Below are positions 30,061 to 59,266 of a DNA stretch of 64,000 nucleotides, piece by piece (the stretch's first letter is position 1; each line of letters starts with the position of its first letter). The notes under the pieces are model-generated. The model worked only from the letters and a program-made list of their open reading frames with translations. It was not told the DNA's origin and searched no databases. The translations under genes and the position numbers were made by a program. This DNA is from Rhodanobacter sp. 67-28 (GTDB lineage Bacteria > Pseudomonadota > Gammaproteobacteria > Xanthomonadales > Rhodanobacteraceae), in the NCBI GenBank assembly GCA_001898415.1, contig MKTU01000039.1:1-64000 (forward strand). Reading direction: 5' to 3'.

Positions 30061-30095
30061 TTGACATGCAACACGAATGGACGTATAGACGTCCA
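30061..30095 (+). promoter_or_regulatory. Promoter with palindromic element upstream of cysB/cysG
   Basis: A perfect -35 TTGACA (30061-30066) is followed after 17 bp by TATAGA (30084-30089), reading toward the LysR gene. The -10 lies inside the palindrome GGACGT-N4-ACGTCC (30079-30094). The 19 bases 30077-30095 match, with one mismatch, the reverse strand at 59248-59266 just upstream of cysJ. The site lies between the divergent cysG and cysB-like genes and so could regulate both. Confidence 0.6.
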
Positions 30096-30239
30096 ATATG
30101 AAAGTATGTCATTCCATCGACAAGGGTATCCGTGGCGACCGGCCAGGGGCTCGTCACGTCGGCGGCCGGGGGATTGCACGATGTATGCGCAGCTGCATCG
30201 CCCATCCGTCCCCCGACCATCGCCCACGGACTCCTGCCC

Positions 30240-31235
30240 ATGACGCTTACCCAGCTGCGCCATCTCATCGCCATCGCCGACTCCGGCCTCAACATCACCC
30301 TGGCGGCCGAGCGCGTGCATGCCACCCAGCCCGGTCTCAGCAAGCAGCTGCGCCAGCTTGAGGACGAGCTGGGTTTTCAGCTCTTCGTGCGCAAGGGCAA
30401 GAGCCTGGATGCGGTGACCCACGCGGGCGAGCAGGTGATCGAACGGGCGCGGATCATCCTGGCCGAGGCAACCAACATCCGCGCGATCGCCGCGAACCTG
30501 CGCAACGAGGCCCACGGCGAGCTGCGCATCGCCACCACGCATACCCAGGCTCGCTTCGCCCTGCCCGCGGCAATCGCCGCGCTCAATGCCAGCTTCCCCC
30601 AGGTCAGCGTGCATCTGGAGCCGACCCGCGACGCCGACGTGCTGGCCCGGCTGGAAGCCGGTCAGGTCGATCTGGCCATTATCAGCAGCGCCGGCAGCGC
30701 GCCGGCCGTCGGCATGGCGTTTGCCGCCTATCGCTGGCAACGAGTGATCGTCACCCCGCGCGACCATCCGCTGGCGCGGCGCGCCGCCGCGCCCACGCTG
30801 ACCGAGCTGGCGGGCCTGCCGCTGGTCAGCTACGACTCCTCGCTGCGGCCGGAGTCGTCCTTGCGCCGCGCGTTCGAGGAGGCCGGGCTGTCACCGCAGA
30901 TCGCGATGACTGCCGGTGACGCCGACCTGATCAAGACCTACGTGCGCGCCGGCATGGGTGTGGGCATCCTCGCCGAAATGGCCATGCAGCCCGGCGACGC
31001 CGACCTGCTCGCGCTGCCGGCCGATGCGTTGTTCGCGCCGTGCACGACCTGGGTGGTACTGCGCAGGGACAGCGTGCCGCGTGAGTACACGCTGGCCTTC
31101 ATCCACCAGTTTGCACCCCATCTCGGTCGCCACGAACTGCGCCGCGCGCTGGCCGGCGAACCACCGCGCGACGGCTGGGCCGAGGTGCCGCACTGGCGCG
31201 AACGTCAGCGGTCGCCTGCCGCGCAAGTCGCCTGA
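30240..31235 (+). CDS. cysB: LysR-family regulator, CysB/Cbl-like
   Basis: The 331-residue protein starts MTLTQLRHLIAIADSGLNIT, close to CysB and Cbl, with the LysR helix-turn-helix LAAERVHATQPGLSKQLRQL. The effector domain includes the CysB-like HGELRIATTHTQARFALPA. CysB activates sulfur-assimilation genes with N-acetylserine as inducer. It is divergent from cysG, with a 291-bp gap that contains a promoter and palindrome. The ATG at 30240 is chosen because the family starts there; the frame is open further upstream. Confidence 0.88.
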   Translation: MTLTQLRHLIAIADSGLNITLAAERVHATQPGLSKQLRQLEDELGFQLFVRKGKSLDAVTHAGEQVIERARIILAEATNIRAIAANLRNEAHGELRIATTHTQARFALPAAIAALNASFPQVSVHLEPTRDADVLARLEAGQVDLAIISSAGSAPAVGMAFAAYRWQRVIVTPRDHPLARRAAAPTLTELAGLPLVSYDSSLRPESSLRRAFEEAGLSPQIAMTAGDADLIKTYVRAGMGVGILAEMAMQPGDADLLALPADALFAPCTTWVVLRRDSVPREYTLAFIHQFAPHLGRHELRRALAGEPPRDGWAEVPHWRERQRSPAAQVA

Positions 31236-31355
31236 CGCTCCTGGTCGGGCCCGCTCCCGCAAGGACGGCTGACGATGCCGTGACGGCCGCGCGCCATCTC
31301 ACCCGGTGAGACGCGCACGCGGCCTAATCCGCGGACCTTCGCGCGGAGCCTGCCG

Positions 31356-33779
31356 ATGAACACATTACCCGACCGCTACGCCAGCGACGACCTCGTGCTG
31401 GATGGGCCGGGCGACGGCCGCAGCCTGGCCCGGCGGCTGTCGAAGCGCTATGCCGCGCGGATCACCGGCGCCTTCGTGGTGCCCGGTCGGGAGGGCACGT
31501 TCGCGCCGCTGCCCGACGATCTCCCCGATGCGCTGGCCGGGGCGCTGCGCACGCGCGGCATCGAGCAGCTCTACAGCCATCAGGCCGAGGCATGGCAAGC
31601 CACGCGGGCAGGCGCGCACGTGGCCATCGTCACGCCCACCGCCTCGGGCAAGTCGCTGTGCTACACGCTGCCGGTCATCAGCGCTGCCATGACCGATCAC
31701 GCCAAGGCGCTGTACCTGTTCCCCACCAAGGCGCTGGCGCAGGACCAGGTGGCCGAGCTGCTGGAGCTGAACCGGGCCGGTGCGCTGGGGGTGAAGGCAT
31801 TCACCTTCGATGGCGACACGCCCGGCGATGCACGACAGGCGATCCGCCTGCATGGCGACATCGTGGTCAGCAATCCGGACATGCTGCACCAGGGCATCCT
31901 GCCGCATCACACCAAGTGGGCGCAGTTCTTCGAGAACCTGCGCTACGTGGTGATCGATGAGGTGCACACGTATCGCGGCGTGTTCGGCTCGCACGTGGCC
32001 AACGTGATCCGCCGGCTCAAGCGTGTCTGCGCGTTCTACGGCGTCACCCCGCAGTTCATCCTGTGCTCGGCCACCATCGGCAATCCGCGGGAACACGCCG
32101 AGGCGCTGATCGAGGATGCGGTCACCGCGATCACCGAAAGCGGTGCGCCCAGCGGCGACCAGCACGTGCTGCTGTGGAACCCGCCGGTGGTGAACCCCGA
32201 CCTTGGTCTGCGCGCCTCGGCGCGCTCGCAGACCAACCGCATCGCGCGGCTGGCGATCAAGAGCGGCATGAAGACGCTGGTGTTCGCCCAGTCGCGCAGC
32301 ATGGTCGAGGTGCTCACCAAGTACCTCAAGGACGTGTTCGACCACGACCCGCGCAAGCGCCCGCGCATCCGCGCCTACCGCGGCGGTTACCTGCCGAAGG
32401 AGCGCCGCGCGGCCGAACGGGCGATGCGCGAAGGCAGCATCGACGGCATCGTCAGCACCTCGGCGCTGGAGCTGGGCGTGGACATCGGCAGCCTCGACGC
32501 GGTGGTGCTGAACGGCTACCCGGGCTCCGTCGCCGCGACGTGGCAGCGTTTCGGTCGTGCCGGGCGCCGCCAGCAATCGGCGCTGGGCGTGCTGGTGGCC
32601 AGCTCCGACCCGCTGGACCAGTACCTGGTGCGCCACCCGGAGTTCTTCCAGGGCGCTTCGCCGGAGCACGCGCGCATCCAGCCCGATCAACCGCTGATCC
32701 TGCTCGACCACATCCGTTGCGCCGCGTTCGAGCTGCCGTTCACCGGCGACGAGATGTTCGGCACCGAGGTCGCCACGCCGTGGCTCGACCTGCTGCGCGA
32801 GGAAGGCGTGCTGCACCGCGAGGGCGATCGCTGGGAATGGATCGCCGACAGCTACCCGGCCATCGCGGTGTCGCTGCGCTCGGTGGCCGACGGCAACTTC
32901 GTGGTGGTCGATCGCACCGACGGCCGCCAGACCATCATCGCCGAAGTCGACTACTCCGCCGCCGCGGTCGCCTTGTACGAAGGCGCGATCCACATGGTGC
33001 AGTCGCTGCCCTACCAGGTGGAGAAGCTGGACTGGGAAGGCCGCAAGGCCTACGTCACGCGCACCAGCGTCGACTACTACACCGACGCCATCGACTACAC
33101 CCGGCTCAAGGTGCTGGACTGTTTCGACAGCGCGCACGCCGGCTGCGGTCAGGCCCATCACGGCGAGGTGCACGTGGTGCGCCGGGTGCCCGGCTACAAG
33201 AAGATCCGCTTCTATTCGCACGAGAACATCGGCTACGGCCCGATCAACCTGCCCGACCAGGAACTGCACACCACGGCGGTGTGGTGGCAGCTGCCGCAGA
33301 TGGTGCTGGAAGCCGCGTTCGAGCAACGCCAGCAGGCGCTCGACGGTTTCCTCGGCGCGGCGTACGCGCTGCACATCGTCGCCACCGTGGCGGTGATGGC
33401 CGAGGCGCGCGACCTGCAGAAAGCCGTGGGCTCGGGCGACGGCGCCTGGTTCGCCAGCACCGACCTCCACGGTCGCGGCCAGCTGCGCGGCAGCGATGGC
33501 CAGCCCGCCGCGCTGGCGCCGGATGCGCCGTTCACGCCCACCGTCTACCTGTACGACGCGTTCCCCGGCGGCATCGGACACAGCGAACCGCTGTTCCGGC
33601 GTCGCGAGGACTTGCTGGCGCAATCGGTCAGCCTGATCGAACGCTGCGACTGCCGCGCCGGCTGCCCCGCCTGTGTCGGCCCGGTACTGGCGACGGACGA
33701 GCAGACCGCCGACGATCCGGCCGTCGCCACGCCCAAGGCCCTCGCCCTGCGCGTGCTCGCGCTGCTGGTGGCGTTGTGA
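31356..33779 (+). CDS. mrfA: DEAD/DEAH-box helicase of the MrfA (YprA) type
   Basis: The 807-residue protein has an SF2 helicase core: Walker A TPTASGKS at residues 93-100, DEVH at 201-204, and the helicase C domain with RAYRGGYLPKERR and GRAGRRQQS. The C-terminal part is a DUF1998-type module ending in a four-cysteine cluster (CDCRAGCPACVGP) near residue 765, a zinc site in MrfA. In Bacillus subtilis MrfA and the exonuclease MrfB repair mitomycin C damage independently of UvrABC. The next gene here encodes an MrfB-like exonuclease and overlaps this one by 4 bp. Confidence 0.85.
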   Translation: MNTLPDRYASDDLVLDGPGDGRSLARRLSKRYAARITGAFVVPGREGTFAPLPDDLPDALAGALRTRGIEQLYSHQAEAWQATRAGAHVAIVTPTASGKSLCYTLPVISAAMTDHAKALYLFPTKALAQDQVAELLELNRAGALGVKAFTFDGDTPGDARQAIRLHGDIVVSNPDMLHQGILPHHTKWAQFFENLRYVVIDEVHTYRGVFGSHVANVIRRLKRVCAFYGVTPQFILCSATIGNPREHAEALIEDAVTAITESGAPSGDQHVLLWNPPVVNPDLGLRASARSQTNRIARLAIKSGMKTLVFAQSRSMVEVLTKYLKDVFDHDPRKRPRIRAYRGGYLPKERRAAERAMREGSIDGIVSTSALELGVDIGSLDAVVLNGYPGSVAATWQRFGRAGRRQQSALGVLVASSDPLDQYLVRHPEFFQGASPEHARIQPDQPLILLDHIRCAAFELPFTGDEMFGTEVATPWLDLLREEGVLHREGDRWEWIADSYPAIAVSLRSVADGNFVVVDRTDGRQTIIAEVDYSAAAVALYEGAIHMVQSLPYQVEKLDWEGRKAYVTRTSVDYYTDAIDYTRLKVLDCFDSAHAGCGQAHHGEVHVVRRVPGYKKIRFYSHENIGYGPINLPDQELHTTAVWWQLPQMVLEAAFEQRQQALDGFLGAAYALHIVATVAVMAEARDLQKAVGSGDGAWFASTDLHGRGQLRGSDGQPAALAPDAPFTPTVYLYDAFPGGIGHSEPLFRRREDLLAQSVSLIERCDCRAGCPACVGPVLATDEQTADDPAVATPKALALRVLALLVAL

Positions 33780-34654
33780 GCGTGAACCCGCTCATCGCGA
33801 AGCTGCGCCAGCTGCGCACCGAGGCGGGACAAGCCCACGCCGCCGTGCCTGCCCGCCATGCGCTGGATGCAGCGACGCCGGGAACCCCCCGCGTCGCGTC
33901 GCCCTCTTCCGCGATGGCGCCCGAGCTGCGCCGGCTGCTCCGGCGCCACGCCCGGCTCAAGCGCGGCACCGCCGCGGTGCCGTCATCCCGCGACCGCGAG
34001 GTGCCGGGCTTCGAACTTTCCCCCGGCCTGCGCTACACCGAGGCGTTTGCCGACTGGCTCGTTCCGCCGCCGGTCATCGACGCCGGCTTCGCCCGCATGG
34101 AACCCGTGCACCACGATCGCCTGCTGCACTTCGACACCGAGACCACCGGCCTGGCCGGCGGCACCGGGACCCGCGCCTTCATGATCGGCGCGGCCGACTG
34201 GCAGGGTGGCCGCCTGCGCATCCGCCAGCTCACCATCACCACCATGGCGGCGGAGACCGCCATGCTGCGCACCTTCGCCGGCTGGCTGGACGAGGACACC
34301 GTGCTCGTCAGCTATAACGGCAAGTGCTACGACGCGCCGCTGCTGGCAACGCGCTACCGTCTCGCCCGCCTGCCGAACCCGCTGGCCGGCCGCGGCCACC
34401 TGGACCTGCTGCATCCGGTGCGCCGCCACTGGAAACACCAGTGGCCGAACTGTCGCCTCGCCACCGCCGAGCGCCAGCTGCTCGGCGTCGTGCGCGAGGA
34501 CGACCTGCCCGGCGCGGAGGCCCCCGCCGCCTGGCTCACCTACCTGCGCGGCGGCTCCGCCCGCAACCTGCGCCGCGTCGCCGCGCACAACGCGCAGGAT
34601 CTGAAAAGCCTGGCCGGGGTGCTGCTGCACATGGCAAACCTGCGGGCACCATGA
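33776..34654 (+). CDS. mrfB: RNase H-like exonuclease of the MrfB (YprB) type
   Basis: The 292-residue protein contains a DEDD-type exonuclease domain beginning LLHFDTETTGLAGGTGTRAF, with acidic metal ligands in FDTET and further motifs around VSYNGKCYDAPLL and VAAHNAQDLKSLAGVL. This matches YprB/MrfB, the nuclease partner of MrfA. The GTG at 33776 overlaps the helicase stop as GTGA; a second GTG at 33782 is possible. The first 80 residues are Ala/Arg-rich and poorly conserved in appearance. Confidence 0.8.
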   Translation: MSVNPLIAKLRQLRTEAGQAHAAVPARHALDAATPGTPRVASPSSAMAPELRRLLRRHARLKRGTAAVPSSRDREVPGFELSPGLRYTEAFADWLVPPPVIDAGFARMEPVHHDRLLHFDTETTGLAGGTGTRAFMIGAADWQGGRLRIRQLTITTMAAETAMLRTFAGWLDEDTVLVSYNGKCYDAPLLATRYRLARLPNPLAGRGHLDLLHPVRRHWKHQWPNCRLATAERQLLGVVREDDLPGAEAPAAWLTYLRGGSARNLRRVAAHNAQDLKSLAGVLLHMANLRAP

Positions 34655-34700
34655 CCGGCGGGCGGCGCGGGGGTATCCCGCGTCGCGCGGCGATCAGTCG

Positions 34701-35219
34701 TCAGCGCCTGCCCGATTCGACGACAGGTTTGCCGCCTGCCATCTTGAAATCGAATACGTACCAGAGGCTGAAAGGTTTCTGCGTCACCTCATACGTGCCA
34801 TCGCCCCGCGGATGCCGCACCCACATCGGCGTGAACGTCCATTGCATGACCGCCTGCTCGACTGCAGCCTCGAACAAGGCATGCGCCGGACCATCCGCAG
34901 TGCCGGGCTGCGGGTGCACGGCCTGGACGCGGCCGTTCTCGTCCATCACCAGCTGCACCACGACAGTGACCGGCGCAGCGCCCGGGCGAACCAGGGTGGG
35001 CGGGTACACCGGCGAGACCTGCTTGTCCAGCACGGGCTTCACCGCCGTATCCCCGGGTTGCAAGGTGTAATGCGGTGCGCTCGCAGGCGCCGCCATCTCC
35101 GCGTAACTGGTCCGGGGCTCCCCAACCGGCTTGCGTTCCTCTTGCGTACTGCAGCCGCAAACCACGGTGGCAACGAAGGTCCACAACACGAGCACCGGCC
35201 AGCTCGACGACACCTGCAT
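34701..35219 (-). CDS. Lipoprotein with TonB C-terminal-like domain
   Basis: The 172-residue product has a signal peptide with a lipobox-like VCGC (C23). The mature part resembles the TonB C-terminal domain (KQVSPVYPPTLVRPGAAPVT, VVVQLVMDENGRVQAVH, FEAAVEQAVMQWTFTPM). Classical TonB is anchored by a membrane helix and spans the periplasm; this version would be tethered by a lipid and is too short to do that. Its role is unknown. The ATG at 35219 was chosen for the signal peptide. It is convergent with mrfB and monocistronic. Confidence 0.65.
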   Translation of the reverse strand: MQVSSSWPVLVLWTFVATVVCGCSTQEERKPVGEPRTSYAEMAAPASAPHYTLQPGDTAVKPVLDKQVSPVYPPTLVRPGAAPVTVVVQLVMDENGRVQAVHPQPGTADGPAHALFEAAVEQAVMQWTFTPMWVRHPRGDGTYEVTQKPFSLWYVFDFKMAGGKPVVESGRR

Positions 35220-35338
35220 GTCCAACCTCCATGATCGAATCAGAATCCGGTTGGGGCGACCCGTCGCCCGCGCGTCAAAATGACAGGGCACCTGCCCATG
35301 CGCAATACGGGAAGGATCGAAGATACCGGCGCCCCACC

Positions 35339-35439
35339 CTTCGACTTCGGCCCCGCGGGCCTGCGCTCAGGGAGAACGGCATGGGCCACCGCCCCCCGTT
35401 CGCACTGAGCTCGACTTGGAACAGCAAGCGGCGTCGAAG
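35339..35439. repeat. Imperfect long inverted repeat, dispersed intergenic element
   Basis: GCTCAGGGAGAACGG (35365-35379) faces CCGTTCGCACTGAGC (35396-35410) with 13 of 15 pairs matching. The outer CTTCGAC (35339-35345) faces GTCGAAG (35433-35439). This is the shape of the common CTTCGAC...GCTCAGGGCGAACGG elements seen between genes in many proteobacteria. It fills the 316-bp gap between murB and the TonB-like gene; no gene was seen there. Confidence 0.65.
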
Positions 35440-35535
35440 TGCACGCGCAATGCACCACCCTTGGCCCACGGGGCTGCGCACTTGCGCCCGGGCAAAACGA
35501 CACAAGGCGCCGGGTGAAGCCCGGATGGCGCGGAC

Positions 35536-36585
35536 TCAGCCCGCGCCGATCACCACCGGTTCCGGCTCCAGCCGCACGCCGAACTTCGCGTGCACGCCGT
35601 CCATCACCTGTTGCGCCAGCGCCCACAACTGCGGGCCATTGGCGTGGCCGTGGTTGACCAGCACCAGCGCGTGGCGGTTGGAGATGCCGGCGTCGCCTTC
35701 GCGTAGCCCCTTGAAGCCGGCCGCCTCGATCATCCACGCGGCGGAAATCTTGCGGCGACCGTCACGCTGCGGCCAGGCCGGCAGGTCGGAGTGCTCGCGC
35801 TGCAATGCTTCCGCCACGGAAGCATCGACGATCGGATTCTTGAAGAAGCTGCCGGCGTTGCCGATCACCGCGGGGTCAGGCAGCTTGCGCGTGCGCAGGC
35901 GTACCACCGCCTCGGCGACGTGGAACGGCGCAGGCTTGTCCACGCCCATCCGCGCCAGTTCCTCGTCGATGCCGGCGTAGTCGGTGCGCAGCGGCCGGCT
36001 GCGCGGCAGCACGAAACGCACCGCGGTGACGATGTAGCGGCCGGGCTCGTGCTTGAACAGCGAGTCGCGATAGGCGAACGCGCAGGTGGCGTGGCCCAGC
36101 GTCACCACGCGATGCTCGCGCAGGTCCCAGGCTTCGACGCTTTCGATGAACTCGGCCACCTCGCAGCCGTAGGCGCCGATGTTCTGGATCGGTGCGGCGC
36201 CGACGGTGCCGGGGATCAGGATCAGGTTCTCCAGCCCGGCGTAGCCCTGTCCCAGCGTCCAGCGCACGAAATCGTCCCAGCGCTCGCCCGCGGCCACCGC
36301 GATGCGCGCGCTGTCGCCGCCACTTTCAACTTGCACGCCGCGCGTCGACATCCGCAGCACGGTGCCGTGGAAATCGTCGGTGAACAGCACGTTGCTGCCC
36401 TCGCCGAGCACCAGCAGCCGCCCCTGGCGGATCGCCGGGAAGTCCAGCAGCTCGGGCAACTTTCCCGCATCGCGGATGTCGGCCAGCAGGTTCGCCCGGG
36501 CATCGACGCGCAAGGTGTTGAGCCGCGCCAGCGACGCGTTCTCGGTGAGCGTGTAGCCGCCCATGTCCACGCGCTCAGACGCCAT
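35536..36585 (-). CDS. murB: UDP-N-acetylenolpyruvoylglucosamine reductase MurB
   Basis: MurB reduces the enolpyruvyl group to make UDP-N-acetylmuramic acid for peptidoglycan, using FAD and NADPH. The 349-residue type I protein has the FAD-binding stretches [16 protein letters not shown] and [20 protein letters not shown], the catalytic region [13 protein letters not shown], the proton-donor [10 protein letters not shown], and the terminal [13 protein letters not shown]. The ATG at 36585 overlaps the pyrD end by 11 bp and has GAGG upstream; a second ATG lies seven codons later. Confidence 0.93.
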
Positions 36586-37621
36586 CGACTGACGCCTCGC
36601 GCTGGCGGCGGATCTCGTTGACGCATTCGGCCACCAGGTGCGGGCCGCGATAGATCAGGCCCGAATAGAGCTGCACCAGCGAGGCGCCGGCGTCGAGCTT
36701 TTCCACCGCGTCGCTGCCGTCGAGGATGCCGCCCACGCCGATCAGCGGGATGCGCTCGCCCAGGCGTTGGCGCATGCCGGCCAGCACGGCGGTGGAGCGC
36801 TCGAACAGCGGCTTGCCGGAGAGCCCTCCTGCCTCGCCGCCGCGCGGGTCGTCCGCCACCGTGGCGCGGTCGGTCGTGGTGTTGGTGCAGATCACGCCGT
36901 CGATGCCGGTACGCAGCAGCACCTCGGCCATCGCATCGAGCTCGACCCCGGAGAGGTCCGGCGCGATCTTCAGCAGCATCGGCTTGCGCCGACCGTGCTG
37001 CGAGCCCAGCCGTTCCTGCGCGGCGCGCAGGAGCGAGATGAACTTGTACAGCGTGGCCTGTTCCTGCAGGTCGCGCAGGCCCTGGGTGTTGGGCGAGGAA
37101 ATGTTCACCGTGACGTAGCTGGCCAGCTCATGCACCTTGGTCAGGCAGGCCAGGTAGTCGTTGACCGCCTTGTCGTTCGGCGTGTCCTTGTTCTTGCCGA
37201 TGTTGATGCCGAGCACGCCGTGGTAGCTCGACTGCTGCACGTTGCGCACCAGCGCGTCGACGCCGTCGTTGTTGAAGCCCATGCGGTTGATGATCGCCTC
37301 GTGCGCGGGCAGCCGGAACAGGCGCGGCTTCGGGTTGCCCGGCTGCGGCAAGGGCGTGACCGTGCCCACCTCGATGAAACCGAAACCCAGCGTGTTCAGC
37401 GCGTCGAGATGCTCGGCGTTCTTGTCCAGGCCCGCGGCCAGCCCGACCGGGTTGGGAAACTCGATGCCGAACGCGCGCACCGGCAGGTCGGCCGGCACGG
37501 TGGCGACGCGATGGGCGAAGCCGCTGCGCTGGGCCACGCCCAGGCCGTACAGGGTCAGCCGGTGGGCCGACTCCGCCTCGAGCGAGAACAGCAGCGGACG
37601 CAGGATGTCGTAGAGGGCCAA
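36575..37621 (-). CDS. pyrD: Dihydroorotate dehydrogenase (quinone), class 2, PyrD
   Basis: PyrD oxidises dihydroorotate to orotate with ubiquinone in pyrimidine synthesis, bound to the inner membrane. The protein has the membrane-binding start [23 protein letters not shown]-site residues in [15 protein letters not shown], the active-site Ser in [14 protein letters not shown], and [15 protein letters not shown]. No ATG or GTG lies near the family start; a TTG at 37621 gives (M)ALYDILRP and 348 residues, close to the E. coli enzyme (336). The start is therefore uncertain, the function is not. Confidence 0.92.
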
Positions 37622-37697
37622 ATCGAAACGCCGGCAGTCGTGGAATGTCGCGCAGTTTAGCGTGCCGGGCAGCGCGCCGAAGGCGGCTGGATCACGC

Positions 37698-38468
37698 TCA
37701 GCCGGCCAGCAGCTGGCCGCCGTCCACGACCAGGGTCTGGCCGGTGATCCAGCCGGCCCACGGCGAGGCGAGGAACAAGGCCGCGTGCGCGACCTCTGCC
37801 GGCGTGCCGTAGCGGCCGAACGGGATCTTCGCCAGCACCTCGGCGTAGCGCGTCGGATCATCCTTGCGGCATTGGTCCCACAGGCCACCGGGAAACTCGA
37901 TCGACCCGGGCGCAATCGCGTTGACGCGGATGCGCCGGGACGCCAGGGCCTGCGCCTGGGAGGTCGTGTAATGACTCAGCGCAGCCTTCATCGCCGCGTA
38001 CGACGGGCCGCCCGGACGCGGCCGCAGCGCCGAGATCGAACTGGTGTGCAGGATGCACGGATGCGCCGACCCGGCCAGGTGCGGCAGCGCGGCCCGCGAG
38101 GCGCGCACGGCCGCCATCAGGTCCACGTTGAAGTTGGCCAGCCAGTCCTCGTCCTCGTCGCGGAAGCCGTAGCCGCTGGCGTTGTTGACCACCACGTCGA
38201 TGCCACCCAGCGCGCTCGCCGCGTCGTCGACCCAGGCCTGGATGGCCGTCGCTTGCGCCAGGTCGACGGATTGCGCGTGCACGGTCACGTCGTGGGCGGC
38301 GATCCGCAGGCGCGTTTCCTCCAGTGCCGCCGCGCCGCGTGCGCAGATCGACACCGCGGCGCCGGCCTGGGCGAAACCCAGCGCGATGCTGCGGCCGATG
38401 CCGCGGCTGCCGCCGGCCACCAGCACGCGCCAGCCATGAAAATCGAACGGCGGCGGCGCACTCACCAT
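37698..38468 (-). CDS. Short-chain dehydrogenase/reductase
   Basis: A classical SDR of 256 residues: cofactor loop [13 protein letters not shown] at the end of the nucleotide domain, and the catalytic Ser/Tyr/Lys in HTSSISAL and YAAMK. The C-terminal FPGGLWDQC and [14 protein letters not shown] are typical. The Arg after the second strand (ICARG) favours NADP(H). The substrate is unknown. Its start overlaps the end of the DUF4190 gene by 7 bp, so the two are translated together. Confidence 0.85.
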
Positions 38469-40624: not shown

Positions 40625-40701
<77 letters not shown>

Positions 40702-40710
40702 ATCGCAGCG

Positions 40711-50830: not shown

Positions 50831-50904
50831 TTCGTGCTCTCCCCCGATGAAAACTGCCGCGCACGATAGCGCGGAACCGTCGCCCGGCGATACGCCGGCC
50901 TTCG

Positions 50905-51513: not shown

Positions 51514-51640
51514 GGCTTCCCGGCGCGGGCCGGAGTGGCTGGCGGATGAACGCCCATGGTAGCGCGCGGCACGGCATCACTTTTCGCATGCGTTTCGCTT
51601 GCGATGCTCGCCCCGCCCCCGACCACCCGGAGCCAACACC

Positions 51641-51928
51641 ATGCCCATGATCCGTTTTCGCCTGATCGGCAGTCGCGCCGACGCCGACACCCTCATTATC
51701 GGCCTGCACGGCATCGACGGCGTCGAGCACATCGAGGAAATCGACGACCCCGCGCTGGGCATCCGCGACGACTCCAGCTCGCTGGGTTCGGCCGGCGACA
51801 GCGACGCACATGCCTATCTCATCGAAGTGGGCGCGGCCAGCGACAGCCTGGCCGACGACGTGCGCATGAACGCCGAAGTACTGGCCAGCGAATGCAGCGC
51901 CGGCATCGAGTTCGTGGATGATTTCTGA
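51641..51928 (+). CDS. Small acidic hypothetical protein
   Basis: A 95-residue product, strongly acidic, starting MPMIRFRLIGSRADADTLII and continuing through VEHIEEIDDP to a terminal EFVDDF. The beta-alpha pattern of the first 40 residues could be a small ferredoxin-like fold. There are no cysteines apart from one near the end. Family unknown. A good CGGAG ribosome site precedes the ATG. It stands alone between oppositely oriented genes. Confidence 0.6.
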   Translation: MPMIRFRLIGSRADADTLIIGLHGIDGVEHIEEIDDPALGIRDDSSSLGSAGDSDAHAYLIEVGAASDSLADDVRMNAEVLASECSAGIEFVDDF

Positions 51929-51965
51929 AAGCCGCGACGACGCCGGTCACCCCGGCGCGCTGGGG

Positions 51966-52412
51966 CTACGGGACGCGACGGTAGCTGCCCTGCATGACCT
52001 TCTCCCAGCTTGTACCGCCGTCGAACGAGCTTTCCAGCACCAGGGTGAACTCGTCGTTGCCCAGCCAGTGGTACACATGTCGTGTCTGCCCGCGCGACGA
52101 ACTGCGCACGAACACCAGCCGATCGCCGTCGCGATATCCGGGCGCAGGTTCTGCGGGAGTGAAGCCGTAGCTGTCGAACCAGTGCAGCGCGAAGTCGCCG
52201 GGACTGGCACCGTCGGCGAATACCGCGTGCGCCTGCAGCGCGGGTTGGCCGTCCCGCGTTTCGCGGTAATCCATCAGCAGCACCCTGCCGCCGAGGGCCA
52301 ACCGCCCGCTGATCTGCGCGAGCGCCGGGCCGCCCTCGCCCCAGCGAGTCGTCGCGATGGTTTCCTCGCCTTCCCATGCCCCATCGAAACGGGCGAGCAG
52401 ATCGTCTCTCAT
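51966..52412 (-). CDS. DUF1579-like small protein
   Basis: The 148-residue protein begins DDLLARFDGAWEGEETIATT, typical of DUF1579-type beta-barrel (lipocalin-like) proteins, with further stretches GRVLLMDYRETRDGQP and VYHWLGNDEFTLVLESSFDG. No signal peptide. Its ATG overlaps the stop of the upstream membrane-protein gene as ATGA, so it is translated together with the PadR/HAAS pair. A binding or regulatory role is possible; none is known. Confidence 0.65.
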   Translation of the reverse strand: MRDDLLARFDGAWEGEETIATTRWGEGGPALAQISGRLALGGRVLLMDYRETRDGQPALQAHAVFADGASPGDFALHWFDSYGFTPAEPAPGYRDGDRLVFVRSSSRGQTRHVYHWLGNDEFTLVLESSFDGGTSWEKVMQGSYRRVP

Positions 52413-53341
52413 GATGTGCTCCGAGTCGTGCCGCGCACCAGCAGGTGTTTGGCCATGGCGCCGTGCAAGCGGCCGATTCCGCGTACCAGGTGCAGGGTGG
52501 CGAACAGCAGCACGGCGCCGAACAGGAACATCGCCAGCACCTCGGCCCAGCCAGGCACGTGCGGGCCGGAACCCCAGTCCAGCAGGATCGTGTGATCCAC
52601 GTACAGGCCCTGCAGCCAGTCGCGGCCAAACAGCATCGCCACCGGCAGTCCCAGCAGGCCCAGCGCGACGGCCAGCAGGACTGCGGTGATGATGAAGTAC
52701 GCGATGCCCAGCGGCAACATCAGCACCATGTAGAACAGCGTGGTCCAGGTGCGCGGGTCGGTAAACATGGCGCCGATCCGCCCCAGCAGCGGCACGCCGC
52801 GTTGCGGGTACGGTGGCCGCCGCGGCATGCGCACGCCCAGCAGCGCTTCCACGATGCGCCCTTCGAGCAGCGAGAGCCCCCGCATGCTGCCGATGAACAG
52901 CACTATGAACGGCAGGCCGATGATCAGCACGGACAGGCCCGCCGACAGCGCGATGCCACCCAGGGCCAGCGTGAAATAGGCGATGCCCGTGGCCGACCCC
53001 AGCAGGATGTAGAACAGCGCACCCCAGGTATGCAGGTCGGTCGCCACGCCGAAGAAGCGCCCGGCCAGCGAGCGACGCGGCGGTGCTGGCGGCGGGCGGA
53101 TCGCCCGCTGCACCTTTATCTCCTGGTCGCGGTAGATCTCGGCCACCTCGTCCGGTGCGCCGTAGCTCTGCACCACTTGTTCGAGCATCGCCGCCTCGTC
53201 GCGTCCGGGGCGTTCGTAAAGCTCGGCGCGCAGGTGTTCCTCGGCGTCGTAGAGCGCATCCTGGATCAGCGCAGGGTCGGCCCCGCGCAGCGCGGCGCGC
53301 AGCTGATCGAGATATTGGGCAATCGTGCGTGGCGCGTTCAT
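52409..53341 (-). CDS. HAAS-domain membrane protein with sensor domain
   Basis: The 310-residue protein starts with a HAAS (helical antisigma-associated sensory) type region (about residues 5-70, YLDQLRAALRGADPALIQDA through GAPDEVAEIYRD). Membrane segments then resemble bacterial sensor domains, with two similar blocks (TDLHTWGALFYILLGSATGI and TDPRTWTTLFYMVLMLPLGI). Such proteins commonly pair with PadR regulators. The ATG at 53341 overlaps the padR stop. It may sense membrane or envelope state and control the PadR protein. Confidence 0.78.
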   Translation of the reverse strand: MNAPRTIAQYLDQLRAALRGADPALIQDALYDAEEHLRAELYERPGRDEAAMLEQVVQSYGAPDEVAEIYRDQEIKVQRAIRPPPAPPRRSLAGRFFGVATDLHTWGALFYILLGSATGIAYFTLALGGIALSAGLSVLIIGLPFIVLFIGSMRGLSLLEGRIVEALLGVRMPRRPPYPQRGVPLLGRIGAMFTDPRTWTTLFYMVLMLPLGIAYFIITAVLLAVALGLLGLPVAMLFGRDWLQGLYVDHTILLDWGSGPHVPGWAEVLAMFLFGAVLLFATLHLVRGIGRLHGAMAKHLLVRGTTRSTS

Positions 53342-53700
53342 GAAACCCCTCCTTGCAAGACGTTGTCGACCGAATCGCGGGTGGCGATCCACGCGGCGGT
53401 CCAGTCGCGCAGCGCGTCGCGCCCGGGCCGGGTGATGCGGTAATAGCGTCGCGGCGGTCCGCTGATCGAAGGCTCGACCTCGCTGGCCAGCAATCCCGAC
53501 GCCTCGAGATTGCGCAGCACCGGATACAACGCGCTCTGCTTGCCGGCGAGCACGCCCTCGCCCACCGCCTCCAGCCGCTTGGCGATCTGGTAGCCGTACA
53601 TCGGCTGGCGCGACTGCGCCAGCACGGCCAGCAGGACCAGCGCCACCGTGCCGGTGGACAGCTCCTTCTGGAACTTCTTCAGTTGACTGCCGTCATCCAT
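53338..53700 (-). CDS. PadR-family transcriptional regulator
   Basis: The 120-residue protein has the PadR winged helix: KELSTGTVALVLLAVLAQ, PMYGYQIAKRLEA, LYPVLRNLEASGLLASEV and PPRRYYRITRPGRDAL. PadR proteins are small repressors with an alpha-helical dimerisation tail. The ATG at 53700 is taken as the start; GTG codons upstream (53721) are possible. It is the first gene of an operon of three, each overlapping the next by ATGA, and is divergent from the cyclophilin gene. Confidence 0.87.
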   Translation of the reverse strand: MDDGSQLKKFQKELSTGTVALVLLAVLAQSRQPMYGYQIAKRLEAVGEGVLAGKQSALYPVLRNLEASGLLASEVEPSISGPPRRYYRITRPGRDALRDWTAAWIATRDSVDNVLQGGVS

Positions 53701-53848
53701 CGCGCTCACCCGCACTGTCACCTGTTACGGTATTCATTCTAGTGTGCAGTTATGACTAGTGAATATGCCTGAAGTCATGCGCCTGCCGGCGACGCGGACG
53801 CTCTGCTAAGTTGCGGGTCTCGCCGTTGCAAACCTTGAGGGGATAGCC

Positions 53849-54790
53849 ATGCATGCACGTCGTCAATTCGCGGCCCTGACGCTGCTGGCCAGCCTGGTCG
53901 CCGTGCCGGCGCTCGCCGCCACGGATACCCAGGCGCCCACGCCGAGCCGCGCCGAGCTGTTGGCCAAGTCCACCGCGGCCGAATGGCGCACGCCCGACCC
54001 GCACAACCTGCTGGTGATGCGGCTGCAGACGGGACGCGTGCTGATCGAGCTGGCGCCGGACTTCACCCCGCTGCATGCGGCGAACATCCGCACCATGGCG
54101 CGCCAGCACTATTACGACGGCCTGGCGATCGTGCGTGTGCAGGACAACTTCGTCACGCAATGGGGCGACCCGGCGGGCGACAACAACGATCCCGCCAGCA
54201 AGCCGCGCTCGCTTGGCAAGGCGCACGCCACGCTGCCGCCGGAATACACGCGGCCGATCGACCCGAGGCTGGAATGGACCCCGCTGCCCGACGGCGACGT
54301 CTATGCACCCGAGGTCGGTTTCAGTGAAGGCTTCCCCGCCGCGCGCGACCCGGCCAGCGGCGAGCAGTGGCTGACCCATTGCTACGGCATGGTCGGCGTG
54401 GGACGCGACATCGGCCCGGAAACCGGCAGCGGCAGCGAGCTGTACGTGGTGATCGGCCAGTCCCCGCGCCGGCTCGACCGCAACCTGGCGATCGCCGGCC
54501 GCGTGCTGGAAGGCATGCCGCTGCTGTCCGCCCTGCCGCGTGGTACCGGCCCGATGGGCTTCTACGACAAGCCCGCGCAACGCACGCCGATCGAATCCGT
54601 GCGACTGGCCTCCGAACTGCCGCCGGCGCAGCGCCCGGCCGTGCAGGTGCTGCGCACGGACAGCGCCACCTTCGCCGCCCTGCTCGACGCCCAGCGCCAC
54701 CGGCATGACGATTTCTACAAGGTGTCGTCCGGCAAGGTCGGCCTGTGCAGCGTCGACATCCCCGTGCGTGAGCCGAAAGCAGCGCATTGA
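53849..54790 (+). CDS. Periplasmic cyclophilin-type peptidyl-prolyl isomerase
   Basis: The 313-residue protein has a signal peptide (about residues 1-23, LLASLVAVPALAA) and a cyclophilin domain: GRVLIELAPDFTPLHAANIR, YYDGLAIVRVQDNFVTQWGD and GMVGVGRDIGPETGSGSELY. A long insert lies between the first and second halves, rich in Pro and charged residues. A GAGGGG ribosome site supports the start. It probably helps fold envelope proteins; the C-terminal 60 residues after the domain are of unknown role. Confidence 0.85.
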   Translation: MHARRQFAALTLLASLVAVPALAATDTQAPTPSRAELLAKSTAAEWRTPDPHNLLVMRLQTGRVLIELAPDFTPLHAANIRTMARQHYYDGLAIVRVQDNFVTQWGDPAGDNNDPASKPRSLGKAHATLPPEYTRPIDPRLEWTPLPDGDVYAPEVGFSEGFPAARDPASGEQWLTHCYGMVGVGRDIGPETGSGSELYVVIGQSPRRLDRNLAIAGRVLEGMPLLSALPRGTGPMGFYDKPAQRTPIESVRLASELPPAQRPAVQVLRTDSATFAALLDAQRHRHDDFYKVSSGKVGLCSVDIPVREPKAAH

Positions 54791-54872
54791 CGCAGGGCAG
54801 CCCTGCCCGCCTGCTCTTCAACGCACCCGGACCAGGAGCGGCGGGCACTGCCCGCCCTGCGGGGACCCACCG

Positions 54873-55592
54873 TCACGCGATGCCGTGCAGTCCGCACTCG
54901 CGCTTGAGGCCGAAGAAGCGTGTTTCCTCAGGGTCCATGCCGGGCTCCCAACGGCGGCTGGTGTGGTGGTCGCCGATCGAGACGTAGCCCTGCTCCCACA
55001 GCGGGTGGTACGGCAGGCGATGGCGGCTGAGATAGTGGCCGACGTCGCGGTCGCTCCAGTCGGCCAGCGGGTGCAGTTTCCAGCGGCCGTGGCGGAGTTC
55101 GAGAAAGTCGATCGCGGCGCGGCTGCGCGATTGCTGCCGGCGCAACCCGGCGATCCAGCTGCCGGCATGCAGTTCATCGAGCGCGCGCTGCATCGGCTCG
55201 ATCTTGCGAACGCGGTTGTACTGGTCGATGCCACTCACTCCCTGGCGCCACAACTGGCCGTGCCGCGCCTCCATCCGCGCGGGGCTGAGCGGCGACTGGT
55301 AGACCTTGAGATTGAGCCCGAGCCGCGCCGTCAGTTGGTCGACGAAATGGTAGGTCTCGGGGAACAGGTAACCGGTATCGATCAGGATCACCGGGATGTC
55401 CGGACGCTGGCGGCTGACCAGATGCAGCGACACGGCGGCCTGCGCCCCGAAACTGGACGACAGCACGTGTTCTCCGGGCAGGTGCTCCAGCGCCCACGCC
55501 ACCCGCTGCGCAGCGCTGCGCGTGGCCAGCATGGCGTTGATCCCCGCAAGCGCCTGCGCGTCGGGGGCGGTGTCCGCCGGCAGCGGTTTCAC
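54873..55592 (-). CDS. cysH: Phosphoadenylyl-sulfate reductase CysH
   Basis: CysH reduces PAPS to sulfite using thioredoxin. The 239-residue protein has the P-loop-like [16 protein letters not shown], the [14 protein letters not shown] motif, and the C-terminal ECGLH with the nucleophilic Cys. The two Cys-Cys pairs that bind the iron-sulfur cluster in APS reductases are absent, so it should use PAPS. Its ATG overlaps the cysI stop as ATGA. It is the last gene of cysJ-cysI-cysH. Confidence 0.93.
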
Positions 55593-57283
55593 GCGAGCAC
55601 CGTGGCGGCGATGCGCCGCGCAGGTGGTGGCTGCAGAACAGCCGCGCGCAGCAGGAAATCACCGAAGCCCTCGCCCGCCTCGCGCTCGGCGGCATAGCGC
55701 GCGAACAGCGGGTCGAGTGCAGCGAGGATGGCCGCTTCGTCGACGTTCTCGCGCCAGACCTGGTTCAGGCGTTGGCCGCGGAAATCCGCGCCCAGGCGCA
55801 GGTCGTAACGCCCCGGGCCGCGACCGACCAGGGCGATCTCGCCCAGGTAAGGACGCGAGCAGCCGTTGGGGCAACCGGACAGGCGCAGCAGGATCGGCGT
55901 GTCGAGCAGGCCGTGCCGGTCCAGCAAGGCTTCCAGTTTCGGCAGCAGCGTCGGCAGGTAGCGCTCGCTCTCGGCCATCGCCAGGCCGCAGGTGGGCAGC
56001 GCCACGCAGGCGATCGCGTGCTGGCGGATCGCGCTGTGCCTTTTGTAGCCGTCCATGCCGTGGCTGGCCACCAGGGCGTCGATCGCGGCGCGATCGGCGG
56101 CCGCCACGTTGGCGATGATCAGGTTCTGGTTGCAGGTGAGCCGGATGTCGCCGGTGTGCACGCCGGCCAGTTCGCGCATGCCGCTGAGCCAGGTGTGCGC
56201 TCCGCGGTCGAGCAGGCGGCCGGACTCCACCTGCAAGGTCAGGTGCCAGCGCCCGGCATGGCCTTCGACCCAACCGTAGCGATCGCCGTTATTGTCGAAA
56301 CGGAACGCGCGCGCCGGCTCCAGCGCGAAGCCCAGGCGCTGCTCGATCTCGGCCTTGACCGCACCGAGCCCAAGCGTGTCGATGGTGTACTTCAGCCGCG
56401 CATGCTTGCGCTCCTCGCGATCGCCCCGGTCGCGCTGCACGGCGATGACGGTTTCGGCCAGCGCGATGAGTTGCGACGGCCGCACGAAGCCGATCACGTC
56501 GGCCAGCCGCGGATAGGTGGCCGGGTCGCCATGGGTGGCACCCATGCCGCCGCCGATGCCCACGTTGAATCCAAGCAACTCGCCGTGTTCGACGATGGCG
56601 ATCAGGGCCAGGTCCTGGGCGAACACGTCGATGTCGTTCTGCGGCGGGATCGCCAGCCCGATCTTGAACTTGCGCGGCAGGTAGGTGGCGCCGTACAGCG
56701 GTTCGCTTTCGTTGGCGGCTTCCTCGCCCACCAGCTTTTCGCCATCGAGCCAGAACTCGTGGTAGGCGCGCGTCTTCGGCTTGAGGTGCTCGGACAGGCG
56801 CACCGCCCACGCGTACGCCGCCTCGTGCGCCGGCGATTCGACCGGGTTGGTGTTGCACACCACGTTGCGGTTGACGTCGCCGCAGGCGGCGATGGTGCTG
56901 GCCATGGCCGCGTTGATCGCGGCGATGGCGGGCTTCAGGTCGCGCTTGATGATGCCGTGCCACTGGAAGGTCTGCCGCGTGGTGATGCGCAGTCCGCTGG
57001 AGGCGTAGTCGCCGGCGATCCGGTCGAAGGCGAGCCACTGCGCCGGGGTCATCACGCCGCCAGGCAGGCGCGCGCGCACCATGAAGGCATACGCCGGTTC
57101 CAGCTTCTGGCGGCGGCGCTCGTCGCGGATGTCGCGATCGTCCTGCATGTAGCTGCCGTGGAACTTCAGCAGCTTGGTGTCGCTCTCGGCGATCGCGCCG
57201 GTGACGGCATCGGCCAGCCCCTCGGCGATGGTGCCGCGCAGGAGGCGGCTTTCGATCTTGATCTTTTCCAGGTGGGAAGGCAT
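55589..57283 (-). CDS. cysI: Sulfite reductase hemoprotein beta subunit CysI
   Basis: CysI carries siroheme and a [4Fe-4S] cluster and reduces sulfite to sulfide with electrons from CysJ. The 564-residue protein has the repeat signatures of the family ([45 protein letters not shown]) and the four cluster/siroheme cysteines in CVALPTCG and [12 protein letters not shown]. The length is close to E. coli CysI (570). It is separated from cysJ by an 83-bp gap with a REP-like hairpin. Confidence 0.95.
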
Positions 57284-57327
57284 CGGGATTCAAGCCAGTT
57301 CGCGTTCGGGTTGCATGCTTATTTGTT

Positions 57328-57355
57328 CGTCATTCCCGCGAAGGCGGGAATGACG
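57328..57355. repeat. REP-like perfect hairpin between cysJ and cysI
   Basis: CGTCATTCCCGC (57328-57339) and GCGGGAATGACG (57344-57355) pair perfectly over a GAAG loop. The sequence belongs to the same kind of element as the repeat between guaB and guaA. Placed between cysJ and cysI it may protect the cysJ message or reduce expression of cysI and cysH. Confidence 0.8.
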
Positions 57356-57366
57356 ACGCGGTTCAC

Positions 57367-59241
57367 TCAATAGACATCGCGGGCGTAACGCCCCTGCTGC
57401 AGAAGATCGGCCAACCAGGCCCGCGCGCCCTCGGCGGACAACCCGCCGTGGGTGGCGACGATCTCCAGCAGGGCTTCGTGCACGTCCCGGGCCATGTGCG
57501 CGGAATCGCCGCAGACATACAGATGCGCGCCTTCGCGCAGCCATGCGTACAGTTCACGACCGTTCTCGCGCAGGCGCTGCTGCACGTAGACCTTGTGCGA
57601 GTCCCTCGCAACACCCCGCACATCCCTGGGCGGACTCTCTGAACGAGCCACGCCGTCGCGCGAGAAGGCCAGGTCGAGGCGGCTCAGGCTGCCGCGGCGC
57701 AAGGCGTCCTGCCACTCGAGCTGGTAGAGGAAGTCGCGGGCGAAGTGGCGGTTGCCGAAGAACAGCCAGTTGCGGCCGCTGGCGGCAGTCGCCTCGCGCT
57801 CCTGCACGAAGGCGCGGAACGGGGCGACGCCGGTACCGGGGCCGATCATGATCACGTCGCGGCTGCCGTCGGCCGGCAGGCGGAAGCGTTCGTTCGGTTC
57901 GATGAATACCGGCACTGTCGCGTCATCGCCCGCGCTGGCAAGGAAGCTCGATGCCGCGCCGTAATGCGTGCTGCCATGCGCAGCGTATTCCACCACCGCC
58001 ACGGTCAGGTGCACCTCGTCCGGCCCCACGGCTTTCGGGCTGGACGCAATCGAATACAGCCGTGGCGTCAGCGGGCGCAGTGCGGCGACCAGTTCGGCGG
58101 CGTCCCACGCGGCGGGAAACTCGCGCAGGAGATCGATCGGCTGGTGGCTTTCCAGCAAGGCGGCGAACTCGGCGCGCTGCTCCGGAGCCAGCAGGCGCTG
58201 CAGACCTGCATGCCTCGTGGCTGCGGCCTGCGCCGCGACCAACGGACGGGTCAGTCGGGTGATTTCGCGCTCCTCGGCCAGCCAGCGCGCCAGCGGCAGG
58301 TGCTTGCCGCCATGTTCGACTTCCGCAGCGCCATCCAGCCGCAACGTCGTCAGCCACTGCTCGACCAGCGCCGGCGGGTTGCGCGGCCACACGCCGACCG
58401 CATCACCGGCTTCGTAACGCAGGCCCGAACCTTCCAGCGACAGTTCGACATGCCGCACGTCGCGCTCGCTGTCGCGCGAGACGATGCGCTGGTTCTCCAG
58501 CACGGCGGCGGCGAACGGTTGCTCGCGCGAGTATGTCGCCACCGTGCGCACCGCGTGCAGTGCCGCGCCCTGACGCGGAGCCGTCGCGGGCACGTCGAGC
58601 GTCTCGCGGGCTGCGGCGAGGGCGCGTTCGGACCAGCCTGCCGCCGCCGCCTCGAAATCCACGTCGGCCTCGCCCAGCTCGGCAAAGCGCTGTCCACCCA
58701 GCTCGGCCAGCCGCGCATCCAGCGCCTGGCTGACCGCGCAGTACTTCGGGTAACTCGAATCGCCCAGGCCCAGCACGGCGAACTTCAGTTGCGGCAACTT
58801 CGGTGCGCGCTTGCCGGCGATGAACTCGACGAAACCCACCGCATCGTCCGGCGGATCGCCGTCACCCTGGCTGCTGATCACCACGCTCAGGAAGCGCTCC
58901 TGGGCCAGCTCGCGCAGCGGGTAGGCGCCGGCGCGCAGCAAGCGCACCGGCAGGCCGGCGGCCTCGGCGCGGGTCGCCAGTTGCTCGGCCACACGGCGGG
59001 AGTTGCCGGTCTGGCTGCCATAGACGATGGTCAACCGCCGGCCCGCGTCCGCCGGTTGCTCGCCCATGCCCGGCAAGCTGGCCGCAACCGCGCCGCCAGC
59101 GGCGGCCGCGGCGCTGTACGCCGCGATCCAGTACAGGTCGGCCGGTGCCAGGCCGTTGGTCAAGCGGGCCAGCAGCGCCAGCCGCTCCGGATCGAGCGTA
59201 GGTGCAGGCGGCAGCGATTTCAGCGCAGCGTTCACGGTCAT
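57367..59241 (-). CDS. cysJ: Sulfite reductase flavoprotein alpha subunit CysJ
   Basis: CysJ passes electrons from NADPH through FAD and FMN to CysI. The 624-residue protein has, in order, a flavodoxin domain (TIVYGSQTGNSRRVAEQL), the FAD region (RLYSIASSP), and the NADPH region (GPGTGVAPFRAFVQER, YVCGDSAHMARDV). The ATG at 59241 directly touches AGAAGGA, leaving no spacer; the GTG two codons later (59235) has better spacing and may be the true start. The gene is divergent from the sulfite exporter and has the palindromic element 59248-59266 just upstream. Confidence 0.94.
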   Translation of the reverse strand: MTVNAALKSLPPAPTLDPERLALLARLTNGLAPADLYWIAAYSAAAAAGGAVAASLPGMGEQPADAGRRLTIVYGSQTGNSRRVAEQLATRAEAAGLPVRLLRAGAYPLRELAQERFLSVVISSQGDGDPPDDAVGFVEFIAGKRAPKLPQLKFAVLGLGDSSYPKYCAVSQALDARLAELGGQRFAELGEADVDFEAAAAGWSERALAAARETLDVPATAPRQGAALHAVRTVATYSREQPFAAAVLENQRIVSRDSERDVRHVELSLEGSGLRYEAGDAVGVWPRNPPALVEQWLTTLRLDGAAEVEHGGKHLPLARWLAEEREITRLTRPLVAAQAAATRHAGLQRLLAPEQRAEFAALLESHQPIDLLREFPAAWDAAELVAALRPLTPRLYSIASSPKAVGPDEVHLTVAVVEYAAHGSTHYGAASSFLASAGDDATVPVFIEPNERFRLPADGSRDVIMIGPGTGVAPFRAFVQEREATAASGRNWLFFGNRHFARDFLYQLEWQDALRRGSLSRLDLAFSRDGVARSESPPRDVRGVARDSHKVYVQQRLRENGRELYAWLREGAHLYVCGDSAHMARDVHEALLEIVATHGGLSAEGARAWLADLLQQGRYARDVY

Positions 59242-59247
59242 TCCTTC

Positions 59248-59266
59248 TGGACGTCTTTACGTCCAT
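59248..59266 (-). promoter_or_regulatory. 19-bp palindromic element upstream of cysJ
   Basis: On the minus strand the element reads ATGGACGTAAAGACGTCCA; it differs at one position from the plus-strand copy at 30077-30095 near cysG/cysB. Its core GGACGT-N4-ACGTCC is an inverted repeat. It begins seven bases before the cysJ ATG, so a bound protein would cover the ribosome-site DNA and early transcribed region. The regulator is unproved; the CysB-like protein is the best candidate from context. Confidence 0.6.

What the first reader, a model, noticed from the sequence alone, without database searches (positions are those of the whole stretch)
30061..59266. Near-identical 19-bp palindrome at two distant sulfur-assimilation loci
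ATGGACGTAWAGACGTCCA occurs at 30077-30095 (plus strand, between cysG and the CysB-like gene, overlapping a TTGACA-N17-TATAGA promoter) and at 59248-59266 (minus strand, just upstream of cysJ and opposite the sulfite exporter), 18 of 19 bases identical. The core is an inverted repeat GGACGT-N4-ACGTCC. It does not follow the LysR T-N11-A pattern, but its halves resemble tandem met boxes (AGACGTCT). So it may be the target of a sulfur regulator other than CysB, or a CysB variant site. A weaker related sequence lies at 59312-59328. The shared site at two cys loci is visible; the regulator is inferred.
Basis: partly seen in the sequence, partly recalled or inferred. Interest (0 to 1): 0.7.

Follow-up and report, generated by a model that had tools for sequence, protein, structure and literature searches.

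The report
MetJ operators control sulfate-assimilation genes
The repeated palindrome is very probably the docking site of the methionine repressor MetJ, which in this Rhodanobacter appears to switch off sulfite reduction and the gene of a cysteine-pathway activator when S-adenosylmethionine is plentiful.

Summary
Observation confirmed. The two 19-mers are where stated, 18/19 identical. They are the window's two strong matches to a matrix built from metJ-upstream sites; 60 shuffles gave none as strong. The genome (genus Rhodanobacter, by titles) encodes one MetJ with the same 16-mer upstream. In the genus the element lies upstream of metJ (30 of 30 loci examined), cysJ (30 of 30) and cysG/LysR (27 of 29), metX (18 of 20) and metK (11 of 20). 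At cysJ it recurs in 65 of 82 further family genomes; MetJ is in 117 of 117. It was not found at cysJ in 10 MetJ-less relatives, nor in 2 MetJ-bearing genomes of another family. A third box lies 8 bp away at cysJ and metX. At 30079-30094 the operator covers the -10 box of the LysR gene (25 of 27). The 'weaker related sequence' belongs to another conserved block. New here: MetJ over sulfite reduction and a cys activator, with a histone-H1-like tail. All computational; binding untested.

The parts
30079..30094 (.). MetJ operator 1 (GGACGTAT|AGACGTCC) between cysG and the LysR gene, covering the -10 box of the LysR promoter
   Evidence: exact match; matrix score 26.9; present in 27 of 29 same-genus cysG loci examined
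30061..30066 (+). -35 box TTGACA of the LysR-gene promoter
   Evidence: TTGACN at this spacing in 23 of 27 loci, own genome included
30084..30089 (+). -10 box TATAGA of the LysR-gene promoter, inside operator 1
   Evidence: TATAGA in 25 of 27 loci, own genome included
30240..31235 (+). CysB-like LysR-type regulator
   Evidence: LysR HTH and substrate domains; best NCBIfam model PRK12680 428 bits (cut-off 482), CysB model 301.7 bits (cut-off 436)
30006..30048 (-). second conserved block, probable activator (CysB-type) site, cysG side
   Evidence: matches the cysJ block: 20 of 27 cysG loci at p<=0.01 against 0 of 20 metX and 0 of 29 metJ
28482..29969 (-). cysG siroheme synthase (conserved start probably at 29948)
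   Evidence: NCBIfam CysG 594 bits; invariant ATGAA start in 15 aligned loci
27467..28519 (-). cysK cysteine synthase, downstream of cysG
   Evidence: TIGR01139 407 bits
59249..59264 (.). MetJ operator 2 (on the - strand GGACGTAA|AGACGTCC) just before cysJ
   Evidence: exact match; matrix score 20.1; 30 of 30 same-genus cysJ loci examined and 65 of 82 further family genomes
   Evidence: conserved in the alignment of 30 cysJ upstream regions; located in the window
57367..59241 (-). cysJ sulfite reductase flavoprotein (start may be the conserved GTG at 59235)
   Evidence: TIGR01931 732 bits; conserved GTGAA in relatives
55589..57283 (-). cysI sulfite reductase hemoprotein
   Evidence: TIGR02041 809 bits
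54873..55592 (-). cysH PAPS reductase
   Evidence: TIGR02057 280 bits
59382..60140 (+). TauE/SafE-type sulfite exporter, divergent from cysJ
   Evidence: PF01925 7e-30

Best explanation
Both palindromes are operators (tandem 8-bp met boxes) of the SAM-dependent repressor MetJ, encoded elsewhere in the same genome. When S-adenosylmethionine is abundant, MetJ-SAM dimers bind the boxes side by side. At 59249-59264 this blocks the start region of cysJIH (sulfite and PAPS reduction). At 30079-30094 it covers the -10 box of the promoter that drives the divergent CysB-like LysR gene, so the activator is repressed as well, and possibly cysG-cysK. The result would be a coherent feed-forward loop: MetJ shuts off the cys operon directly and, by lowering its activator, indirectly. 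Shown: the sites, their conservation, the MetJ gene, the third box at 8-bp spacing and the promoter overlap. Inferred: MetJ binding, SAM dependence, repression, and that the LysR protein activates cysJ and cysG through the second conserved block.
For: One MetJ gene, PF01340 2.4e-35, aligned to the solved E. coli repressor with an identical kitvsipl strand (1cma, 1.5e-30). Same element upstream of metJ in 30 of 30 loci examined (of 35 same-genus genomes with MetJ), always 181-185 bp before the domain match. Matrix built from those metJ sites only: cysJ hit at p<=0.01 in 65 of 82 family genomes; metX 18 of 20, metK 11 of 20. Controls at p<=0.01: cysJ in 10 MetJ-less genomes of other families 0 of 10; cysG in 8 of the other-family loci 0 of 8 (lowest p 0.035); metF 0 of 6; 13 of 23 PF01053 loci 0 of 13. 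A third box at -8 at cysJ and metX. The matrix's two best positions in 2.1 kb around E. coli metJ are 8 bp apart and 182 bp upstream of it (13.1 and 9.6); nothing at E. coli cysJ (best -3.9). LysR promoter -10 inside the operator, 25 of 27. 21-mer pattern: 75 matches in the own genome against 5 for the reversed control, palindromic sites counting on both strands.
Against: No binding or expression data. In 17 of 82 family genomes, in six genera, cysJ lacks a significant site although MetJ is present: 5 of 5 in one genus, 4 of 4 and 2 of 2 in two others. Two MetJ-bearing genomes of another family (f12) lack it at cysJ. metX lacks it in 2 of 20 and metK in 9 of 20; metF shows none in 6. 28 of 33 exact or one-mismatch 16-mers in the own genome lie inside called ORFs. 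At the cysG side the operator is 125-180 bp from the start of the match, so direct control of cysG is uncertain. The reversed pattern reached 2-5 mismatches in the same upstream regions. The peaks at 0 and +8 follow from how the sites were registered; only the -8 peak is independent. Upstream regions of related species are not independent samples.
Confidence: 0.92

Rival explanations
1. The palindrome is the binding site of the CysB-like LysR regulator encoded next to operator 1.
For: It adjoins the LysR gene and lies at two cys loci; LysR regulators often bind next to their own gene (general knowledge).
Against: The same element lies at metJ, metX and metK; arrays of three 8-bp boxes at cysJ; no T-N11-A within the 19-mer (read from the sequence). 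A different conserved block, found at the two cys promoters and not at metX or metJ, fits the LysR protein better (metK was not tested for it).
Confidence: 0.04
2. Chance or codon-bias matches: GAC GTC runs are frequent in this GC-rich genome.
For: 28 of 33 exact or one-mismatch 16-mers in the genome are inside called ORFs; raw pattern not enriched against its reverse.
Against: Present at similar distances in 30 of 30 cysJ and 27 of 29 cysG loci examined in the genus, at cysJ in 65 of 82 family genomes; no equally strong score in 60 window shuffles.
Confidence: 0.01
3. MetJ binds, but operator 1 serves mainly cysG-cysK and not the LysR gene. (This is a variant of the best explanation, not exclusive with it.)
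For: cysG faces the operator; siroheme is needed for sulfite reductase (general knowledge).
Against: The operator sits 125-180 bp from cysG with the second block in between, whereas it covers the conserved -10 box of the LysR promoter.
Confidence: 0.2
4. The sites act as RNA hairpins or terminators.
For: They are short inverted repeats; the metK variant could also pair as RNA.
Against: They sit at promoters and starts in 8-bp arrays; no Rfam match at gathering score in L066 and L096, which hold the two cys loci.
Confidence: 0.02

Closest known systems
Enterobacterial MetJ regulon (met boxes AGACGTCT)
   Same: MetJ domain aligned to the E. coli repressor; tandem 8-bp boxes; metJ, metX and metK as targets; the matrix finds a tandem site upstream of E. 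coli metJ.
   Different: Here cysJIH and a CysB-like activator gene are targets; E. coli cysJ has no site by this matrix. Box consensus is GGACGTCC. The protein carries a Lys/Ala-rich tail absent from the 20 enteric-type MetJ loci kept. The MetJ section of PMC4239095 (read whole) names no sulfate-reduction gene; its Table S2 was not seen.
SamR regulon of Xanthomonadales (PMC4239095)
   Same: Controls methionine genes in the same order.
   Different: SamR is a distant SahR (ArsR-type) homolog with a 24-bp motif (passages); this is MetJ. That paper places MetJ in enteric-related orders and notes the absence of potential transfers to other lineages.
McbR-CysR cascade of Corynebacterium glutamicum (PMC2580772)
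   Same: The sulfate-reduction activator gene belongs to the regulon of a sulfur-metabolism repressor (abstract).
   Different: Unrelated proteins: McbR TetR-type (PMC4239095 passage), CysR ROK-type. That the wiring is the same is my inference.
E. coli CysB control of cys genes
   Same: A LysR-type activator probably acts at the second block of both promoters (inference).
   Different: No met box at E. coli cysJ by this matrix.

Membership tests
MetJ operator (met-box array) | two or more tandem 8-bp boxes related to AGACGTCT | tested here: met
   two boxes at each site; a third box at -8 at cysJ and metX in relatives; box consensus as in PMC4239095
MetJ operator (met-box array) | a MetJ gene in the same genome | tested here: met
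   117 of 117 family genomes
MetJ operator (met-box array) | same element at known MetJ targets | tested here: met
   metJ 30 of 30, metX 18 of 20, metK 11 of 20; metF 0 of 6; metE and metH not tested
MetJ operator (met-box array) | SAM-dependent MetJ binding | not testable with these tools
   needs a binding assay
MetJ repressor family | MetJ ribbon-helix-helix domain | tested here: met
   PF01340 4.3e-35, NCBIfam MetJ equivalog 125 bits over cut-off 110; strand kitvsipl identical to 1cma; which residues touch DNA is recalled
MetJ repressor family | short protein (104-residue chain in 1cma) without a basic tail (usual form, not strictly defining) | tested here: not met
   183-211 aa with Lys/Ala tail; HC2 4.5e-8, below its cut-off; tail in 51 of 52 closed frames of L176-L235, 0 of 20 of L236-L255
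LysR-type (CysB) operator | T-N11-A dyad | tested here: not met
   no T-N11-A within the 19-mer (read by eye)
LysR-type (CysB) operator | found at cys promoters and not at met genes | tested here: not met
   element also at metJ, metX, metK

The most novel reading that the evidence does not exclude
In this family MetJ has become the top-level switch of reduced-sulfur supply, wired as a coherent feed-forward loop over sulfite reduction and its activator, with a second SAM sensor (an S-box riboswitch) stacked below it at metX; and its histone-H1-like tail lets it spread or bridge DNA between operators, making it part repressor, part nucleoid protein.
Probability: 0.2. Interest if true: 0.7.

Novelty: new variant of a known kind. 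Interest (0 to 1): 0.5.

Why it matters
It brings the MetJ regulon into an order for which a wide comparative study reported SamR in the genomes it examined (PMC4239095), and ties methionine sufficiency to sulfate reduction through the repressor itself, which the matrix does not show in E. coli. The tailed MetJ raises a question that can be tested at the bench: does a basic tail change operator affinity, cooperativity or range? PMC12146267 (passages) proposes that MetJ mediated the down-regulation of methionine enzymes in Rhodanobacter thiooxydans in a denitrifying community; this finding supplies candidate operators.

Tried and rejected
CysB/LysR site, chance and RNA hairpin readings: see rivals. 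Raw mismatch counts of GGACGT-N4-ACGTCC were rejected as a genome-wide test. Other matches outside called ORFs were not pursued: C19:37239 (between convergent ORFs), C17:109062, C57:13755 (between gltB and an ORF without family match), C74:53945 (near an IS1182 transposase), C77:62843. The aspartokinase site (C24:141288) was seen in the own genome only. Operator 1 was not tested outside Rhodanobacter except in 8 other-family cysG loci. Partial cysJ hits in G053 and G056 were not examined. No structure prediction was run. Literature: ten searches listed no paper that I recognised as describing this regulon or the tailed MetJ; most listed papers were not opened, one search showed 10 of 187 papers and so says little, only openly licensed PMC papers are held, and supplements were not readable. 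Papers opened: PMC4239095 (outline, passages, one whole section, part of Discussion), PMC12146267 and PMC10963904 (passages), PMC2580772 (abstract and outline).
Full report
What is there. The window (4.08-Mb genome in 82 contigs) carries at 30079-30094 GGACGTATAGACGTCC and at 59249-59264, read on the minus strand, GGACGTAAAGACGTCC. The first lies between cysG-cysK and a CysB-like LysR gene, the second directly before cysJIH, opposite a TauE-type exporter.

The regulator. The genome has one MetJ match (E 2.4e-35). Its upstream region holds an exact 16-mer, GGACGTCTAGACGTCC. Its domain aligns to the solved E. coli repressor (1cma, 1.5e-30) with an identical kitvsipl strand. Beyond the domain it has a Lys/Ala-rich tail, with a weak match to histone-H1-like HC2 (4.5e-8, 33.9 bits, below the cut-off of 40).

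Conservation in the genus. Of 36 genomes of the genus searched, 35 have MetJ and 31 a full-length cysJ; loci were returned for 30 of each. In one search the element was found with at most 3 mismatches upstream of metJ in 30 of 30 loci, always 181-185 bp before the domain match; upstream of cysJ in 30 of 30, within 74 bp of the match start; and upstream of cysG in 27 of 30 loci. The three cysG misses are a genome of another family without MetJ (L123), a locus cut by the contig end (L124) and L125, a 63%-identical cysG. The reversed control pattern reached 2-5 mismatches in the same regions, so mismatch counts alone prove little; constant position and the alignments carry the argument.

Independent matrix test. 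A 16-column matrix was made from the 30 metJ sites only. In 82 further genomes of the family (two of them Rhodanobacter), the best score upstream of cysJ was reached by at most 1 of 200 shuffles in 65. The 17 failures fall in six genera; in two of these (g22, g24) the listed best match still holds one box-like stretch next to the start. MetJ itself was found in 117 of 117 family genomes, 26 genera. Same matrix, same threshold: cysJ in 10 genomes of other families without MetJ 0 of 10; in two MetJ-bearing genomes of family f12 0 of 2; cysG in 8 of the other-family loci 0 of 8 (lowest p 0.035); metF 0 of 6; 13 of the 23 PF01053 loci 0 of 13. metX, which is followed by a PF01053 gene on the same strand in the own genome, 18 of 20; metK 11 of 20. 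On the window, two positions score above 18 and none in 60 shuffles does. In E. coli the two best positions in the 2.1-kb region around metJ are 8 bp apart, 182 bp upstream of metJ (13.1 and 9.6); the cysJ-queD region has none (best -3.9).

Array logic. Single-box scores are high at 0 and +8 at metJ, cysJ, cysG and metX, which is expected from the way the sites were chosen; independent of that, a third box stands out at -8 at cysJ and metX but not at metJ or cysG. The alignment shows three boxes at cysJ in relatives. Tandem 8-bp boxes are the described MetJ operator structure (PMC4239095 passage).

How it probably works. At 30079 the operator covers TATAGA of a TTGACA-N17-TATAGA promoter that reads into the LysR gene. 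Over 27 genus loci (own included) TATAGA is kept in 25 and TTGACN at the same spacing in 23; the LysR homolog is present divergently in 26. At 59249 the operator lies next to the ribosome site of cysJ. A second conserved block, 59298-59340 and 30006-30048 on the minus strand, is shared by the cysJ and cysG promoters (20 of 27 cysG at p<=0.01; 0 of 20 metX, 0 of 29 metJ). So MetJ-SAM would repress the activator gene and the activator's target together. MetJ binding, SAM dependence and the activator's role are inference.

Wider regulon. A 21-base pattern gives 75 matches in the own genome against 5 for its reverse (palindromic sites count twice). Of the 33 exact or one-mismatch 16-mers, 28 lie inside ORFs by a crude GC3-based caller; the other five are metJ, LysR/cysG, cysJ, C19:37239 and C17:109062. 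Among weaker matches, sites in gaps upstream of genes lie at metX, metK and an aspartokinase gene, and one by gltB. metX has in addition an S-box SAM riboswitch between operator and gene (76.4 bits; also in the three relatives tested).

The tail. One search kept the best 80 of at least 519 MetJ loci. Of L176-L235 (60 loci, titled as Rhodanobacteraceae or Lysobacterales or as unnamed proteobacterial MAGs), 52 have a closed frame and 51 of these a Lys-rich tail; 8 run off the contig. None of L236-L255 (20 loci: enterics, Vibrio, Oceanisphaera, Kangiella) has one (listing). Its function is unknown; DNA bridging or spreading is a guess.

Known and new. PMC4239095 (MetJ section, first part of the Discussion and passages read) gives MetJ to enteric-related orders, SamR to the Xanthomonadales it studied, and names no sulfate-reduction gene among MetJ targets in the text read; Table S2 was not seen. 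PMC12146267 (passages) mentions a putative MetJ in R. thiooxydans; the passages name no operators. In Corynebacterium the activator gene cysR belongs to the McbR regulon (PMC2580772 abstract): similar wiring from unrelated parts. The searches listed under Tried and rejected showed me no description of this regulon.

Noticed in passing
L151:1352-1468 (-), own genome contig C46 (also L386); relatives L388, L400, L405: S-box SAM riboswitch (RF00162) between the MetJ operator and metX: two SAM sensors on one gene.
   Followed up: partly
L011:1239-1874 (-): MetJ carries a Lys/Ala-rich histone-H1-like C-terminal tail, shared by 51 of 52 closed frames of L176-L235.
   Followed up: partly
window 59298-59340 and 30006-30048, minus strand: Conserved 43-bp block shared by the cysJ and cysG promoters, probable LysR activator site.
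   Followed up: partly
L165:1759-1774 (own genome C57:13755): Weaker met-box-like element in the gap between gltB and a divergent ORF without Pfam or NCBIfam match.
   Followed up: no
L143:1503-1518 (own genome C24:141288): Met-box-like element upstream of an aspartokinase gene; conservation untested.
   Followed up: no
L211: A Luteibacter MAG whose metJ frame closes after 41 residues of the matched stretch, the one untailed closed frame of L176-L235.
   Followed up: no
window 59235: The conserved cysJ start in relatives is a GTG; here it lies six bases inside the ATG-started ORF and has better spacing to AAGGA.
   Followed up: partly
genomes G014, G022, G023, G028, G031 (same genus): Five of 36 genomes of the genus gave no full-length cysJ match, although G014, G022, G023, G028 and G031 have MetJ.
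   Followed up: no
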